A stretch of DNA of 36,396 bases from Chitinispirillales bacterium (GTDB taxonomy: Bacteria > Fibrobacterota > Chitinivibrionia > Chitinivibrionales > Chitinispirillaceae), in contig JAITFQ010000052.1 of the NCBI GenBank assembly GCA_031281225.1, positions 1 to 36,396 on the forward strand, given 5' to 3'. Shown piece by piece: positions 46 to 33,657 of this stretch (position 1 is the first letter of the stretch; each line of letters opens with the position of its first letter). The notes beneath the pieces are model-generated. The model was not told the DNA's origin. It saw only the letters and a list, made by a program, of their open reading frames with translations, and ran no database searches. A program made the position numbers and the translations under genes.

Positions 46-59
46 CCCCCCCCCCCCCC
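46..59. repeat. Poly-C homopolymer tract (14 C)
   Basis: Direct reading: ttttt-cccccccccccccc-agcaaat. Confidence 0.9.
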
Positions 60-206: not shown

Positions 207-2066
207 GTGCTTGGCACAAGGATGCTGGCTTCGCTTATTAACAGCGGGCGGTACATAGGTATCGAACGCTCCAACGCATTTCTTGCCGAAATTGAGCGCG
301 AACAGGTAAAGCAGCGCAGCGGTGCCATTGATGACAACCAAATTAGCGAATTAGGCCGCCAGTTCGGTGTCGATTACATTTGCATAGCCGACATCACGCC
401 GGCATTCGGCGAGTTTCAGGTTTCCGCCCGTATAGTCGACGTTGAAACTGCGGTAGTTGTCTTTATTGGCGACGCTTTCAGTCCGCTGAGAACACCGGAC
501 GACCTTACGCAAGTTTCGGAAGAAGTTATCAAAAATATGTTTAGCAGGCAAGCAACAATGCCTAAACCCGAACCTGCCGCACCGTCACCACTACTGCTCC
601 CTCCCGTCGTCGTCACTCAAGCGACAGGAGCGGGGACAGGAACGGGTGATATAGCCACGGTAGAGAATGTGGTGAGAAGTGGCGAAGCTGAAATAGATAT
701 GGTGTTTGTGCGGGGCGGAACATTTGATATGGGGTGCACGGATGAGCAAAGCGGGTGCAGGCGATGGGAAAAACCGGTGCGTAGCGTAACGGTCAGCGAT
801 TTTTACATCAGCAAATACGTGGTAACGCAGGCTCTGTGGAGGGCGGTGATGGGTGAAAACCGTTCTATGCCCAAAAAATTCAGAGGCGACGATTCGCCGG
901 TTGTAAATGTTCGTTGGAGGGATGTTCAGGAATTCCTTACGAGATTGAATGAGACCACAGGAAAACAGTTCCGTTTGCCAACAGAAGCGGAGTGGGAATA
1001 CGCAGCCCGCGGCGGAACACAAAGCAGGGGTTACATGTATGCCGGAAGCAATAATATTGACGATGTAGCGTGGCATAAAGGCAATAGCGGGAAAAATATA
1101 CCTTCGGTTGGCGGCAAAATGCCCAATGAATTGGGTATATATGACATGAGCGGTAATGTGTTTGAGTTGGTTAGCGACAGGTTCGGGTGGTATGGTTCAT
1201 CAAGCGAGATCAATCCTGAGGGCCCCGGCTCAGGTTCCGGCCATACGATTCGCGGCGGTAGCTGGCGCGGATTTTCAGAGTTCAGCCAAAATTCCTACCG
1301 CAACGGTATCTTTCACAATGGTGTTCCTTTTACCAGTACCAATATGCGACCTTTCCGTAGTGGTTCTTGGAGGTGGAGTATACCCCTTGTAGGCATTCGT
1401 TTAGCCCACGATTTCAATCCAGACGTTGTGGTGGCGTCTTTGGAAAAACCAGCGGGTGGTTTGACTCAAACGGAAAATGGCGAGACAGGTCCGAGAGGAT
1501 TTTTTCCACGTTCGATTGGCGGTGGAACGTATTTTACTAATAATAGAGGAATTGTAGGGGACTGGGGAAAGGGTGGGATTGATGGACGTCTAACCTACAA
1601 CGACGGGGGAATTTACATATTCTTTACTGAGGTTTTCGGTAACTTTATAGTAGGATTTTCTGCTGGAATTTCTTTTGGAAGCGCAAACCTGAAAGAAGAA
1701 GATGAATGGGATAGAACCGTCATAAGTAATTTTGATGTGCCATTTACAAGCGTTGGTTTTGGTAGTTGCTTTAGGGTCCCGATTCATCTTTCAAGAAATA
1801 TGATAATTTTCCCGTTTATTCTTGAAGGACATATCTCATATATCTCACAGTTGTTTTCTAAAAAAACGGAATTTGACTTTGGTGGAATTCGGATAAACTT
1901 AGGAATAGGAGTTGGTGCCGATTTCAATCTGAGTGAGAGAACATTTTTGCGCCCTGAATTATTATACGGTTGGGGTGTAGATGAACTCGTATTTCGCAAT
2001 GAAAATCGTTTTAACGGAATGGGACACGGCTTGACCCTGAAACTAAGCTCCGGCTTCCGGTTCTGA
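207..2066 (+). CDS. Secreted/outer-membrane protein: CsgG/TolB-like N-terminal region, SUMF1/FGE-sulfatase-like domain, C-terminal beta-barrel-like region
   Basis: FGE-like motifs GGTFDMGC, RLPTEAEWEYAARGG, YDMSGNVFEL, IRGGSW, VGIRLAHD. The same frame is open upstream and encodes ITLKCLLYPFFLLIILTNATTSFAQ, a signal-peptide-like sequence, so 207 (GTG) is probably not the true start. Confidence 0.75.
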   Translation: MLGTRMLASLINSGRYIGIERSNAFLAEIEREQVKQRSGAIDDNQISELGRQFGVDYICIADITPAFGEFQVSARIVDVETAVVVFIGDAFSPLRTPDDLTQVSEEVIKNMFSRQATMPKPEPAAPSPLLLPPVVVTQATGAGTGTGDIATVENVVRSGEAEIDMVFVRGGTFDMGCTDEQSGCRRWEKPVRSVTVSDFYISKYVVTQALWRAVMGENRSMPKKFRGDDSPVVNVRWRDVQEFLTRLNETTGKQFRLPTEAEWEYAARGGTQSRGYMYAGSNNIDDVAWHKGNSGKNIPSVGGKMPNELGIYDMSGNVFELVSDRFGWYGSSSEINPEGPGSGSGHTIRGGSWRGFSEFSQNSYRNGIFHNGVPFTSTNMRPFRSGSWRWSIPLVGIRLAHDFNPDVVVASLEKPAGGLTQTENGETGPRGFFPRSIGGGTYFTNNRGIVGDWGKGGIDGRLTYNDGGIYIFFTEVFGNFIVGFSAGISFGSANLKEEDEWDRTVISNFDVPFTSVGFGSCFRVPIHLSRNMIIFPFILEGHISYISQLFSKKTEFDFGGIRINLGIGVGADFNLSERTFLRPELLYGWGVDELVFRNENRFNGMGHGLTLKLSSGFRF

Positions 2067-28094: not shown

Positions 28095-29000
28095 TCATAG
28101 CCGTTTTTTCCTGATTTTATGAATTTTTTTATAAATTTTATATCCTATAATACCCAAAAAAGGTACCCTGTTTATTACGCTTATAACATTATTTTTCATA
28201 GAATACGCTTCCACGAGAGCATACTCTGACAGCCTTTCGAATAATTTTTCACACAATACCGCTGATACCCCCCCCCCCCCTATACATATATCAACACCTA
28301 TATCACTCTTTTTGATTATAACAATATCTACCCTATCCTCTGAAGTATTTTCTATAATAACTTCCGCATGTTCACTCAATATTTTTGATACGTTGTATTT
28401 ATCATTTTGCCGCCAAATTATAAAATCACCGTTTTCAACACTAAGGTTCCACTGATGAAACCCGTGATAACTTTCCTCCTCCGCTTCGTTTTTGGTGTGC
28501 TGTAAAACTATTTTCCCGTCTTTTTTGCAGATTGCCATCATCTGCATAATACCGAATATCGGATTAAACGCGTGGTCAAGCGAGTTACGCATGTGTACTA
28601 TATCAAATGTGTTATGTTCAAATTTATCCGTTAACCTCTCAACCATACAATACTCCGGTGCAATGCCGGCGGTGATATTGCGTTTTTTTCTTAAAATTTT
28701 ATAACTGTGCGCAAGCGGATCCACCGCGATGATGCGCAGTTTGGTTTTATCCGTTTTGCTTCCGCATGTCGACAGCGGCCCGCTTCCTATGTCGATACAA
28801 AAAGTTTCCGGCGAGTCAAAATATTGTTCGATGTTACACTGGCGCTCATTTGAAATACGGTCGCGAAAATCTGGCCAGTTCTTTTCCATCGCGCGTCTCC
28901 AGTGACCGACTTCCGACGGTATGCCTTTCAACCAGGTTTCTAAATATTTTTCATACGCGTTCAAGTCAAAATAAAATTCACTTAATGATTCAATCAGCAT
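28095..29000 (-). CDS. SAM-dependent methyltransferase containing a poly-G tract
   Basis: FCIDIGSGPLSTCG; IIAVDPLAHSY; FDIVHMRNSLDHAFNP; KIVLQHTKNEAEE. The 13-G tract encodes CIGGGGV. Confidence 0.78.
   Translation of the reverse strand: MLIESLSEFYFDLNAYEKYLETWLKGIPSEVGHWRRAMEKNWPDFRDRISNERQCNIEQYFDSPETFCIDIGSGPLSTCGSKTDKTKLRIIAVDPLAHSYKILRKKRNITAGIAPEYCMVERLTDKFEHNTFDIVHMRNSLDHAFNPIFGIMQMMAICKKDGKIVLQHTKNEAEEESYHGFHQWNLSVENGDFIIWRQNDKYNVSKILSEHAEVIIENTSEDRVDIVIIKKSDIGVDICIGGGGVSAVLCEKLFERLSEYALVEAYSMKNNVISVINRVPFLGIIGYKIYKKIHKIRKKRL
28268..28280. repeat. 13-nt poly-C (poly-G on coding strand) tract inside CDS
   Basis: Direct reading: gctgata-ccccccccccccc-tataca. Confidence 0.92.
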
Positions 29001-29011
29001 AAAATTGCCTC

Positions 29012-30133
29012 TTATTTGTCCGCTTTAAATTTAAACAGTTCCAAAGTTTCCCGTGCCGCCTTTTGCCAGCAGTATTTCGCTCTAACGGCGCCGCATTTTC
29101 TTTTGAGTTCGGCCAGCGCTTCTTCCGATTCCAGTAGCCGCCGCATTGTCAAGGCAATCTCTTCGGTGCTGTACGGATCAACATAAGTGGCCGCTTCGCC
29201 TAATATTTCCGGCAAGGCTGAGTTGTTCGACGCTAACACCGGCGTATCGGAATAGACGGATTCAAGCGCCGCTATCCCGAACCCTTCATACAAACTCGGA
29301 AACGCGAAAAGCGTCGCCCCTCTGTAAAAAAGCGGCAGCTCGCAGTCTTCCACATAGCCGGTAAAGATAACCCTGTCCGAAATTCCAAGCTCCTTAACCT
29401 TGTGATAAGTCTGCTCATACCACCAGCCCTGTCCCCCAACTATCACTAAATCGTGTTTGATGTTGTCTTTTATCATCGAATACGCGCACAGCAGTCTCTC
29501 CAAATTTTTCCGTGGTTCCAAAAACCCAATGAAAAGTATATACTCGCGATTGATATTGTATTTCTTCTTAACATCTGTTATCCGCTCAATTGCCGGTTCG
29601 TCCAAAAACTTGATATCAGCCGCTTCATGGACGACACAAATTTTCTTTTCGTAGGGGCCGATATATTTGAGGATGTCGGCCTTTGTGAAATTTGACACGG
29701 CTATGACCCTGTCGGAAAACTTTACGGATAAACGGATTATCTGTTTGAAAAAACGCCGCGAACGCGGATAGTATTTTGCCATTGGGAAAAAGCTTAAGTC
29801 GTGAATAGTTACCACAGAATAAAGTCTAGGATGAAACGGCGGCGCCGTATAGTTGGGTGAAAACAAAACACGAATTTTGAATTTTTTGCATAGAATCAAG
29901 GGCAAAAACGTCAACTCCCACAGTAAACGCGGCAACGTTTTCGACGGCGCACAAGGTATAATTTTGAAATTTGACGGCAGATTCAAAAATTGATCTTTCA
30001 CGGCGCTTGTCGTGAAAATAAAATATCTGTTATCGAAATCAACTTGAGCCAAAGCGTTGACGATATTCAATATATAAAATGACGCCCCGCCCTTTTGGGT
30101 GCTCAATGCCGACGCGTTGATTCCGATATTCAC
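29012..30133 (-). CDS. Glycosyltransferase family 4/GT1-type
   Basis: MNIGINASALSTQKGGASFYILNIVNAL; YILFIGFLEPRKNLERLL; VIFTGYVEDCELPLFYRGATLFAFPSLYEGFGIAALESVYSDTPVLASNNSALPEILGEAA. Confidence 0.93.
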   Translation of the reverse strand: MNIGINASALSTQKGGASFYILNIVNALAQVDFDNRYFIFTTSAVKDQFLNLPSNFKIIPCAPSKTLPRLLWELTFLPLILCKKFKIRVLFSPNYTAPPFHPRLYSVVTIHDLSFFPMAKYYPRSRRFFKQIIRLSVKFSDRVIAVSNFTKADILKYIGPYEKKICVVHEAADIKFLDEPAIERITDVKKKYNINREYILFIGFLEPRKNLERLLCAYSMIKDNIKHDLVIVGGQGWWYEQTYHKVKELGISDRVIFTGYVEDCELPLFYRGATLFAFPSLYEGFGIAALESVYSDTPVLASNNSALPEILGEAATYVDPYSTEEIALTMRRLLESEEALAELKRKCGAVRAKYCWQKAARETLELFKFKADK

Positions 30134-31165: not shown

Positions 31166-32029
31166 TTACGCTCCACACGAGCCGGTTTGCGTAAATGGCA
31201 AGACATAATCCTGTTTATATCTGTTGCACGGAGAGTCCAACCCTTTTATGGGATATTTTTCTCTTGACGGTGCCACGCTTCCAGTTATCAGGTTTTTATT
31301 TATAAGCGTTACTTCTATGATATTTGGTATTTCCGTATTTTCAACCAAGCCGCAGTAATTATTTCCATGCACATGGGCAATGTAAAATTTCTCCAGCAAC
31401 ATATCAAGCAGTTTTATAAATTCGCCACCGCGGGTTGCGAGAAAATGAACCTCTATCGCTATTCCGTTGATTTTATCCAAATGTTTCACAAGTTGCGGCA
31501 ACGTATCGTATTCGGCTCCTTCAATATCCATTTTTAAAAAAATCGATGTGTCGTCGACATTTCCTAACTCTTTGAATACCGTGCCAAGGCTCGTGTGAGT
31601 GTCGTCGTCGCGTGTTCCAAGGTATTTTGGAATGAAATGCCTCTCTTTTTTGCTGTTAAAAAACCTGTAAAACTTTGATTTCAAACAAATTTGCCACAAG
31701 TGTTCTTTGGCCCGGTACGGATTAAGTCGCGCTAAATTATATACAACACCCGCGCATGAACGTAAAGAAAAGCGTATCCAATACCATGCGCTTTTTTCCA
31801 AAAGTTCTTTTGTCGAGAGGTCGTAGGCGTATATTTTTACATTTTTTCTTTTGAAAAATGCTTTTTCAAAAGCCCAGTCTAACTGTACCCCGAAAGACAA
31901 AATAGTTTTTGTTTTCTCTATTTGCCTTTTAGCGAGAATATATCCACCGTCGTATTTGCCTCCAAGACGAATCAGGTCGTCCAATTCAATAGGCTGGAAT
32001 TTATTAAAGTCAAACATCGTTATTTTCAC
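31166..32029 (-). CDS. FkbM family methyltransferase
   Basis: LGGKYDGGYIL; SFGVQLDWAFEKAF; IFLKMDIEGAEYDTLPQLV; SD ggaggtgaaaataacg before ATG. Confidence 0.78.
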   Translation of the reverse strand: MKITMFDFNKFQPIELDDLIRLGGKYDGGYILAKRQIEKTKTILSFGVQLDWAFEKAFFKRKNVKIYAYDLSTKELLEKSAWYWIRFSLRSCAGVVYNLARLNPYRAKEHLWQICLKSKFYRFFNSKKERHFIPKYLGTRDDDTHTSLGTVFKELGNVDDTSIFLKMDIEGAEYDTLPQLVKHLDKINGIAIEVHFLATRGGEFIKLLDMLLEKFYIAHVHGNNYCGLVENTEIPNIIEVTLINKNLITGSVAPSREKYPIKGLDSPCNRYKQDYVLPFTQTGSCGA

Positions 32030-32082: not shown

Positions 32083-33657
32083 TCAGCATCCCGCCACGGT
32101 GATTTTTTTTCCGTCCACGACTTCTTCCCTCATGTAAACTTTTTCGTCCCATGATTTTTCTGTGTCGCGGTCGAAGATAACGAGCCATCCGGTGTCTGAG
32201 CCGACTTTGTCCATGTATTGGGATATTTGGTCGAGTGATTTGGAGCGGTCTCTTATGTTTTGCAGGATTTTGAGTTCGATGGGGTACTTGTGCCCCTCGT
32301 AGACGACACACAGGTCTGCCCGTTTTTTGCCCAAAGCCATTTCGCGGATGATCTGGCCGCCGCTGTTTACGATTCTTTGCAAGAATGCCTGTATGACTAA
32401 GTGCGCGGCGGCTTCGTCGTATTCGTAGAGGTTTGTTTTGTAGCGTTTCACCCAAATTTCGCTGTTCTCGCGCCAATATGTCTGAAAATCCTTTATCAGG
32501 AAGTTCATATCAATCTTACCGTCTTTCAGGTAACGCGGGATAGTGTAGTTTTCGTACCCTCTCTCTATTGATTTCAGGGCATCCCAGTTCAAAGTCCTGA
32601 TCATCAGGTTTGCGTAGATAGGGTTTGCCGGTTCAACCCTGCCGTTACTCTCCCTTATAAGACCTAAATCTCTCGCGTACAGATAGTCATTCGAACGCTC
32701 ACTTGTCTCAATATCTTCGCCTAAAATAAGCGGTTTTATGATATTGCGCACTCGCGGCTCTTTCAGTCTCTCCATCATGCTGTCGAAATGCGTGCCCCAT
32801 TTGGTGATGAGGTTTTGGATGGCCTGTTCCGCCATATCTTTTGTGATGGGTATTAAGTAATCTTTTTTGGTTATTTTTTCTGCGGATTCGCAAGCAATAG
32901 CGTTTACAAGCCAAGGCTGTCCCTGCGTTTGCTCAAAAACATAGTCCACAACTTGCGACTCAAACACTTGCCCCGTTTCAATCGTATGCTGTGCGTAAAG
33001 TTCAGCAACTTCCAGTTGTGTAAAATTTCTTAAACTAAAACTTTTTTTCATAATATTAAACGGGCTTGCGCTGCCGACCGTTTCGGAATTGGGGCGAATC
33101 AGGGACTTGTAGTCCCGAATGTTCCGCATCCCAACAAGAGCAACGGAGTGGACAAACGGAATATCAGACCTGTTTATGTAGCCTTCCCGCAACTGTCTTA
33201 AAAACGCGATCAAGGTACCGTTAGACAGGCAGTCCGCTTCGTCAAAAAATATAACTAACGGTTTGTCAAGCGAGCGGCAGTATTTCACAAGTGTAGATTT
33301 CAGCACATTGGCGATATCGTCGTAATCAGCGTCTCTCGCGAACCCTTCCGGCAACCCTCGCTCTTCAATACAGTTTTTTATTTTTTTTACCACCGCCGGG
33401 ATACCGTCTTTCGGGTCAGCAATCCCCTGTATGGCTTCTAATGAGCAATACAGGGAGTAATACTTCCCCTCCGCGTTTATTTTGCGGTTGAGCTCCTGAA
33501 GCAGCGTCGTTTTCCCGCTCTGGCGGGCCGCGTGGATGACGAAATAGTGTTCGCTGTCGATAAGGTCCATAAGTTCATCGACAATGCCCCGAAACGGGTC
33601 GAGCATATAGTGCTTGCTCGATACGCATGGGCCGGCTACGTTAAAAAATTTAGGCAT
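32083..33657 (-). CDS. AAA-like ATPase with C-terminal PD-(D/E)XK nuclease-like region
   Basis: Walker A HAARQSGKTTLLQEL; Walker B LVIFFDEADCL; C-terminal KRADLCVVYEGHKYPIELKIL matches a D...ExK nuclease core. Confidence 0.8.
   Translation of the reverse strand: MPKFFNVAGPCVSSKHYMLDPFRGIVDELMDLIDSEHYFVIHAARQSGKTTLLQELNRKINAEGKYYSLYCSLEAIQGIADPKDGIPAVVKKIKNCIEERGLPEGFARDADYDDIANVLKSTLVKYCRSLDKPLVIFFDEADCLSNGTLIAFLRQLREGYINRSDIPFVHSVALVGMRNIRDYKSLIRPNSETVGSASPFNIMKKSFSLRNFTQLEVAELYAQHTIETGQVFESQVVDYVFEQTQGQPWLVNAIACESAEKITKKDYLIPITKDMAEQAIQNLITKWGTHFDSMMERLKEPRVRNIIKPLILGEDIETSERSNDYLYARDLGLIRESNGRVEPANPIYANLMIRTLNWDALKSIERGYENYTIPRYLKDGKIDMNFLIKDFQTYWRENSEIWVKRYKTNLYEYDEAAAHLVIQAFLQRIVNSGGQIIREMALGKKRADLCVVYEGHKYPIELKILQNIRDRSKSLDQISQYMDKVGSDTGWLVIFDRDTEKSWDEKVYMREEVVDGKKITVAGC

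What the first reader, a model, noticed from the sequence alone, without database searches (positions are those of the whole stretch)
28268..28280. Possible phase-variable poly-G tract inside a surface-glycan methyltransferase
A 13-G run sits in the coding strand of the 28095-29000 methyltransferase (CIGGGGVSAVL). With 13 G the ORF continues 57 codons past the tract. With 14 G it would hit TGA shortly after (GGT ATC AGC GGT ATT GTG TGA), and with 12 G it enters another frame that also ends early. Long poly-G tracts in glycan genes are established phase-variation switches in other bacteria such as Campylobacter. The gene lies at the end of a glycan operon, fitting a surface-variation role.
Basis: partly seen in the sequence, partly recalled or inferred. 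Interest (0 to 1): 0.72.

Follow-up and report, generated by a model that had tools for sequence, protein, structure and literature searches.

The report
Slippery G-tract in a methyltransferase gene
A run of 13 Gs near the end of a methyltransferase gene in an uncultured Chitinispirillales bacterium, probably from a termite gut, is real and could work as a random on/off switch; it is one of dozens of long G/C runs that mark this whole genus, many of them just in front of genes for secreted proteins, which suggests a little-known gut symbiont varies its surface the way some pathogens do.

Summary
The + strand has 13 C at 28268-28280, which is G13 in the coding strand (codons 241-245) of a 301-aa SAM methyltransferase. 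With 10, 13 or 16 G the protein is full length; 14 stops at 250 aa and 12 at 267 aa. Chance predicts about 0.002 such runs in the window. The only ortholog found (82% identity, same genus) has no G-run and no Gly4, yet codons after the tract are under purifying selection (dN/dS about 0.09), so 13 is the ON frame. The catalytic domain lies upstream, so switching would swap the C-terminal tail.

The wider result is stronger than the single site. Long G/C tracts (12 or more, usually 13-29) occur 27-38 times per genome in four congeneric MAGs. Poly-A is not expanded, and mutS/mutL are found in most genus members. Homologous genes are caught in both states: a prepilin-like gene is in frame in one species and out of frame in another, and a second methyltransferase is out of frame while its orthologs are intact. 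Tracts lie preferentially 5' of secreted-protein genes with C on the coding strand. Phase variation is likely but unproven: no reads were available. It is a new member of a known kind.

The parts
28268..28280 (-). poly-G tract, G13 on the coding strand (13 C on +)
28095..29000 (-). class I SAM-dependent methyltransferase, 301 aa; tract at codons 241-245; Pfam Methyltransf_23/11 at residues 68-194
28095..28250 (-). C-terminal segment, codons 251-301 plus stop, conserved in the ortholog (dN/dS about 0.09); lost or replaced at 12 or 14 G
29012..30133 (-). GT4 glycosyltransferase immediately upstream, likely same operon; order also seen in the sister genome
30130..31206 (-). NAD-dependent sugar epimerase/dehydratase (SDR)
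31166..32029 (-). FkbM-type methyltransferase
46..59 (+). second long tract of the window, C14 on the coding strand, within or just 5' of the N-terminal (signal-peptide) region of the 207-2066 gene
207..2066 (+). secreted-type protein gene behind the C14 tract (FGE-sulfatase domain; N-terminal 'AVYVTGD' domain shared by many paralogs in the genus, several with the same kind of 5' tract)

Best explanation
The G13 run is a hypermutable simple-sequence (contingency) site inside a methyltransferase gene, one of a genus-wide set of long poly-G/C tracts in uncultured Chitinispirillales (Fibrobacterota). Slipped-strand mispairing would gain or lose single Gs: n = 10, 13 or 16 keeps the full protein (ON), n = 14 stops at residue 250 and n = 12 at residue 267 with a foreign tail. 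Because the predicted catalytic domain lies before the tract, the switch acts as C-terminal phase variation: it removes or replaces the conserved basic, hydrophobic tail and so probably changes localisation or activity of an enzyme that modifies a cell-surface glycan. Shown: the tract, the frame consequences, purifying selection on the downstream frame, the genus-wide tract set, and homologous genes in and out of frame in other members. Inferred: slippage in living populations, the effect on the enzyme, the glycan target and any selective advantage.
For: Tract and frames. Far above chance. Codons after the tract stay under purifying selection (dN/dS 0.088, 49 codons) like the core (0.07), while the roughly 14 codons round the tract are saturated. 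The sister ortholog lacks the tract and Gly4, so the run is not kept for a protein motif. Own-genome run lengths are bimodal (9-10, none of 11-12, then 13 or more). Genus-wide excess of G-runs of 12 or more (27-38 in four genomes; most other genomes 0-6). Not matched by poly-A. A prepilin-like gene is in frame at C15 in G000 and out of frame at C15 in G002. A G002 methyltransferase with G17 is out of frame while G007 (87%) and G010 (71%) orthologs are intact without the tract. Tracts sit 5' of ORFs on the C strand (71 vs 24, p about 1e-6), 49/71 with signal/TM-like N-termini vs 45/134 controls.
Against: No reads or second isolate were available, so length variation is not shown. The single ortholog lacks the tract, so there is no conserved switch at this site. 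Most tracts in the genus are 5' of genes with C on the coding strand; this one is intragenic with G on the coding strand, the minor class, and could be neutral. The tract falls in a variable linker outside the catalytic domain. The AlphaFold model was unusable (pLDDT 31), so the effect of losing the tail is unknown.
Confidence: 0.62

Rival explanations
1. Neutral expansion: a lineage-wide mutational tendency lengthens G/C runs wherever they are tolerated; this one sits in an unconstrained linker and has no switching role.
For: The linker is saturated in divergence and the sister ortholog has no tract; many tracts are outside genes; several tracts are parts of dispersed repeats.
Against: Tracts are not randomly placed: strand bias 71 vs 24 and enrichment 5' of secreted-protein genes; G000's 9-10 G runs, by contrast, lie inside ORFs, 17 of 17 in the loci tested; mutS is found in 6 and mutL in all 8 genus genomes, so no general loss of repair explains it; poly-A is not expanded.
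Confidence: 0.25
2. Assembly or sequencing artefact: the tract length, or the tract itself, is an Illumina poly-G product.
For: 25 of 33 tracts in G000 lie within 150 bp of a contig end, and flanks there are G-rich and error-laden.
Against: This tract is internal, with homologous coding sequence in one frame on both sides. At the C16/C146 contig pair, errors after the run are to G when read along the G strand and to C when read along the C strand, the mark of a real homopolymer and not of dark-cycle G calls.
Confidence: 0.05
3. RNA-level switching: RNA polymerase or ribosomes slip on the G13 tract, so one DNA sequence yields a mixture of C-termini.
For: Long homopolymers can promote transcriptional slippage (general knowledge, not tested here); all three frames give proteins of 250-301 aa.
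Against: Does not explain tracts in non-coding positions 5' of genes or the genes found out of frame in assemblies.
Confidence: 0.08

Closest known systems
Campylobacter jejuni Cj1426c, a phase-variable capsule O-methyltransferase controlled by a poly-G tract (PMC8355987; PhasomeIt survey PMC6321876)
   Same: Poly-G in the reading frame of a methyltransferase lying with glycosyltransferases; frameshift by single-G slips; part of a genome-wide poly-G phasome.
   Different: Different phylum; no homology to Cj1426c tested; the tract here is longer (13 vs mostly 8-11) and lies after the catalytic domain; length variation not observed.
C-terminal phase variation in Helicobacter canadensis (PMC2823697)
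   Same: Poly-G of 10 or more late in the ORF, so each frame gives a protein with a different C-terminus; includes glycan genes such as rfbB.
   Different: Here the alternative tails change length by 34-51 residues, not a few; no length heterogeneity measured.
Promoter poly-G/C phase variation such as Neisseria meningitidis porA (PMC3639595)
   Same: For the other tracts of the genus: poly-C 5' of secreted-protein genes, 18 of 128 with a TTGACA within 60 nt upstream.
   Different: Spacing to a -10 box does not fit a 17-bp spacer at present lengths; promoter activity not shown; does not apply to the methyltransferase tract.

Membership tests
SSR-mediated phase-variable (contingency) locus | pure mononucleotide tract above the length where slippage is frequent (G/C of 7-9 or more) | tested here: met
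   13 G, uninterrupted
SSR-mediated phase-variable (contingency) locus | plus or minus 1 unit changes the product | tested here: met
   250, 301 or 267 aa at 14, 13 or 12 G
SSR-mediated phase-variable (contingency) locus | tract length varies between cells or isolates | not testable with these tools
   no reads; one genome per species; the ortholog lacks the tract
SSR-mediated phase-variable (contingency) locus | homologous loci found in both ON and OFF states | tested here: inconclusive
   not for this gene; seen for a prepilin-like gene and for another methyltransferase in the genus
SSR-mediated phase-variable (contingency) locus | reversible change of expression or phenotype | not testable with these tools
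   needs culture or reporter
C-terminal phase variation (H. canadensis type) | poly-G of 10 or more in the last fifth of the ORF with distinct C-termini in all frames | tested here: met
   tract at 0.80 of ORF
Cj1426c-like capsule O-methyltransferase | class I SAM methyltransferase domain | tested here: met
   Methyltransf_11 21.7 bits (cut-off 21.2), Methyltransf_23 26.2 (cut-off 27): marginal
Cj1426c-like capsule O-methyltransferase | located in a capsule or other surface-glycan locus | tested here: inconclusive
   GT4, epimerase and FkbM neighbours, but no capsule export or polymerase gene seen
Cj1426c-like capsule O-methyltransferase | sequence homology to Cj1426c | not tested
   -

The most novel reading that the evidence does not exclude
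A genus of uncultured gut Chitinispirillales (Fibrobacterota), apparently from termites, runs a genome-wide surface phasome: dozens of poly-C tracts (C on the coding strand) about 150-310 nt 5' of genes for secreted proteins and lipoproteins, spread partly as a dispersed 5' cassette (TTGACA...Cn with palindromic flanks), plus intragenic tracts in prepilin-like and methyltransferase genes, of which the window's G13 is one.
Probability: 0.4. Interest if true: 0.68.

Novelty: new member of a known kind. Interest (0 to 1): 0.52.

Why it matters
Poly-G/C phase variation is known mainly from host-adapted mucosal bacteria. A large set of such tracts in an uncultured gut symbiont of another phylum would show that stochastic surface variation also evolves outside pathogens, perhaps under phage or host pressure. 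It also gives a directly testable set of loci: existing metagenome reads can be re-examined for tract-length mixtures. In practice, 25 of 33 tracts in this MAG lie at contig ends, so they probably cause assembly breaks and false pseudogenes in this lineage.

Tried and rejected
Mismatch-repair loss as cause of the tracts: mutS was found in 6 of 8 genus genomes (not in two MAGs that are 68% complete) and mutL in all 8, and poly-A runs are not expanded. Protein-level Gly4 motif: rejected, the ortholog has none. Promoter role of the tract on the + strand: no + strand gene starts nearby. AlphaFold of the two-sequence alignment: pLDDT 31, not used. PDB profile search: no hit at E up to 1. Viral contigs: no relative. 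Phylum-wide search (168 genomes) gave no further full-length ortholog. The -35/-10 spacer model for the 5' tracts was considered but spacings do not fit well. Papers were read only through term searches of their text; PMC3639595 only by its abstract.

Full report
What is there. The window (52% GC) is contig C72 of a 2.57-Mb, 163-contig genome. The only named relative with this gene is a MAG labelled Chitinispirillales bacterium Spi319_bin3. The sample name and a published termite survey suggest termite gut, but I did not confirm that, and I do not know the window's own host. On the + strand 28268-28280 reads 13 C, which is G13 in the coding strand of ORF 28095-29000(-). The run starts at codon 241 in phase 0. 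In the whole window no other C-run exceeds 6 and no G-run exceeds 7, except a C14 at 46-59; a first-order Markov model expects about 0.002 runs of 13 or more.

Frame consequences. Computed directly: 10, 13 or 16 G give the full ORF (300-302 aa); 11, 14 or 17 G stop after 249-251 aa; 9, 12 or 15 G stop after 266-268 aa with the tail ...YQRYCVKNYSKGCQSMLSWKRIL. Pfam places the methyltransferase domain at residues 68-194 (Methyltransf_23 just below and Methyltransf_11 just above their cut-offs). A slip therefore alters the C-terminal 57 codons and leaves the predicted domain intact. The normal tail ends ...INRVPFLGIIGYKIYKKIHKIRKKRL, a basic and hydrophobic stretch; membrane association is my inference.

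Comparison with the ortholog. Among 41 relatives, and then 168 genomes of the phylum, only the congener G001 has a full-length ortholog (82% identity), next to the same GT4 gene. It has no G-run and no Gly4: IGVDICIGGGGVSAVLCEKLFERL against VEIDKDLQKSLIK-ILDEKLFERL. Nei-Gojobori estimates give dN/dS 0.072 for codons 1-230 and 0.088 for codons 251-301, while codons 236-250 are saturated. So the frame read with 13 G has been conserved on both sides of the tract, and the tract sits in a fast-evolving linker.

The tract is one of many. In the own genome, runs of 9 or more G/C number about 55. Apart from G-rich contig ends they fall into two groups: 9-10 (17 of 17 tested lie inside ORFs) and 13 or more, with none of 11 or 12. 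Runs of 12 or more number 33 in G000, 27 in G001, 38 in G002, 29 in G007, 13 in G003, 8 in G004, 5 in G005 and 0 in G006. Most of the other 53 genomes searched have 0-6, with a few at 8-11, so the excess is strongest in, but not unique to, this genus. Poly-A runs of 12 or more are 0-4 per genome. mutS is found in 6 of 8 genus genomes (the two without it are 68% complete), and mutL in all 8.

Are the tracts real? 25 of 33 in G000 lie within 150 bp of a contig end, and flanks there are often G-rich. The ends of contigs C16 and C146 overlap across one tract (G14 in one, G17 in the other) inside a sensor-kinase-like gene. Errors in the overhangs are 16 of 17 to G on one side and 5 of 6 on the other, written on the G strand. 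Since one contig was extended along the C strand, its errors were calls of C. This fits loss of phase after a true homopolymer and not dark-cycle G. It also means assembled lengths at contig ends are not reliable. The window's methyltransferase tract is internal, and both flanks are supported by homology.

Signs of switching elsewhere in the genus. (a) A prepilin-like family (GSxIVGVxxALVFIGIV): the G000 copy has C15 in its leader and is in frame; the G002 copy has C15 and runs from its ATG into TAA just after the tract, open again at 14 or 17; a G004 copy has C18 at a contig end; the other 15 family members found have no tract. (b) A second methyltransferase in G002 carries G17 and is out of frame, while its orthologs in G007 (87%) and G010 (71%, another genus) are intact and lack the tract. 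(c) In G000 a further methyltransferase has a C13 directly before its N-terminal region at a contig start, and a G20 precedes a type IV pilin N-methylation motif.

Placement of the tracts. Across seven congeneric genomes an ORF of 150 aa or more starts within 450 nt on the C strand at 71 places and on the G strand at 24 (p about 1.5e-6). Of the 71, 49 have a signal- or TM-like N-terminus by a simple hydropathy rule, against 45 of 134 control ORFs from the same loci (Fisher p about 1.8e-6) and 3 of 24 on the G strand; distances are mostly 150-310 nt. Many of these ORFs belong to one loose cluster of paralogs (37 members), so the counts are not independent, and start codons are unrefined. 18 of 128 tracts have TTGACA within 60 nt 5' of the C-run, but spacings to a -10 box do not fit a standard promoter.

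Interpretation. The best reading is a contingency locus of the C-terminal kind (compare H. canadensis, PMC2823697), in a genus with many such tracts. The nearest functional parallel is the phase-variable capsule O-methyltransferase Cj1426c of C. jejuni (PMC8355987). The missing proof is length variation within a population. Neutral expansion in a tolerant linker remains the main rival. A search of the held literature for phase variation together with Fibrobacter found 11 papers; the 8 listed are not about phase variation in that group judging by titles and abstracts, and that search covers open-licence papers only.

Noticed in passing
window 46-59: Second long tract, C14 on the coding strand, at or before the signal-peptide region of the 207-2066 gene; the in-frame upstream reading hits a stop just before the tract, so the assembled state may be OFF, but the contig begins here.
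   Followed up: partly
L092/L273 (G002 C1:19874-20480): Methyltransferase with G17 out of frame; orthologs in G007 and G010 intact and without the tract.
   Followed up: yes
L053/L223 (G000), L214/L235 (G002), L087/L239 (G004): Prepilin-like genes with poly-C in the leader, in frame in one species and out of frame in another.
   Followed up: yes
L093, L170, L172-L174, L178, L179 (G001); L113, L122, L129, L130, L205 (G007): Dispersed repeats round the tracts: TTGACAAAACTG-Cn in G001 and CTTGACAAAATGAGAAATA-Cn-ATGTTTTAA in G007, often with a palindrome downstream; function unknown.
   Followed up: partly
L039 and L080 (G000 C16 and C146 ends): Two contig ends are the same locus across a tract (G14 vs G17) with homopolymer-directed base errors; tracts probably fragment these assemblies.
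   Followed up: yes
window 32083-33657(-): AAA-type ATPase gene of 524 aa next to the glycan genes, no NCBIfam match.
   Followed up: no
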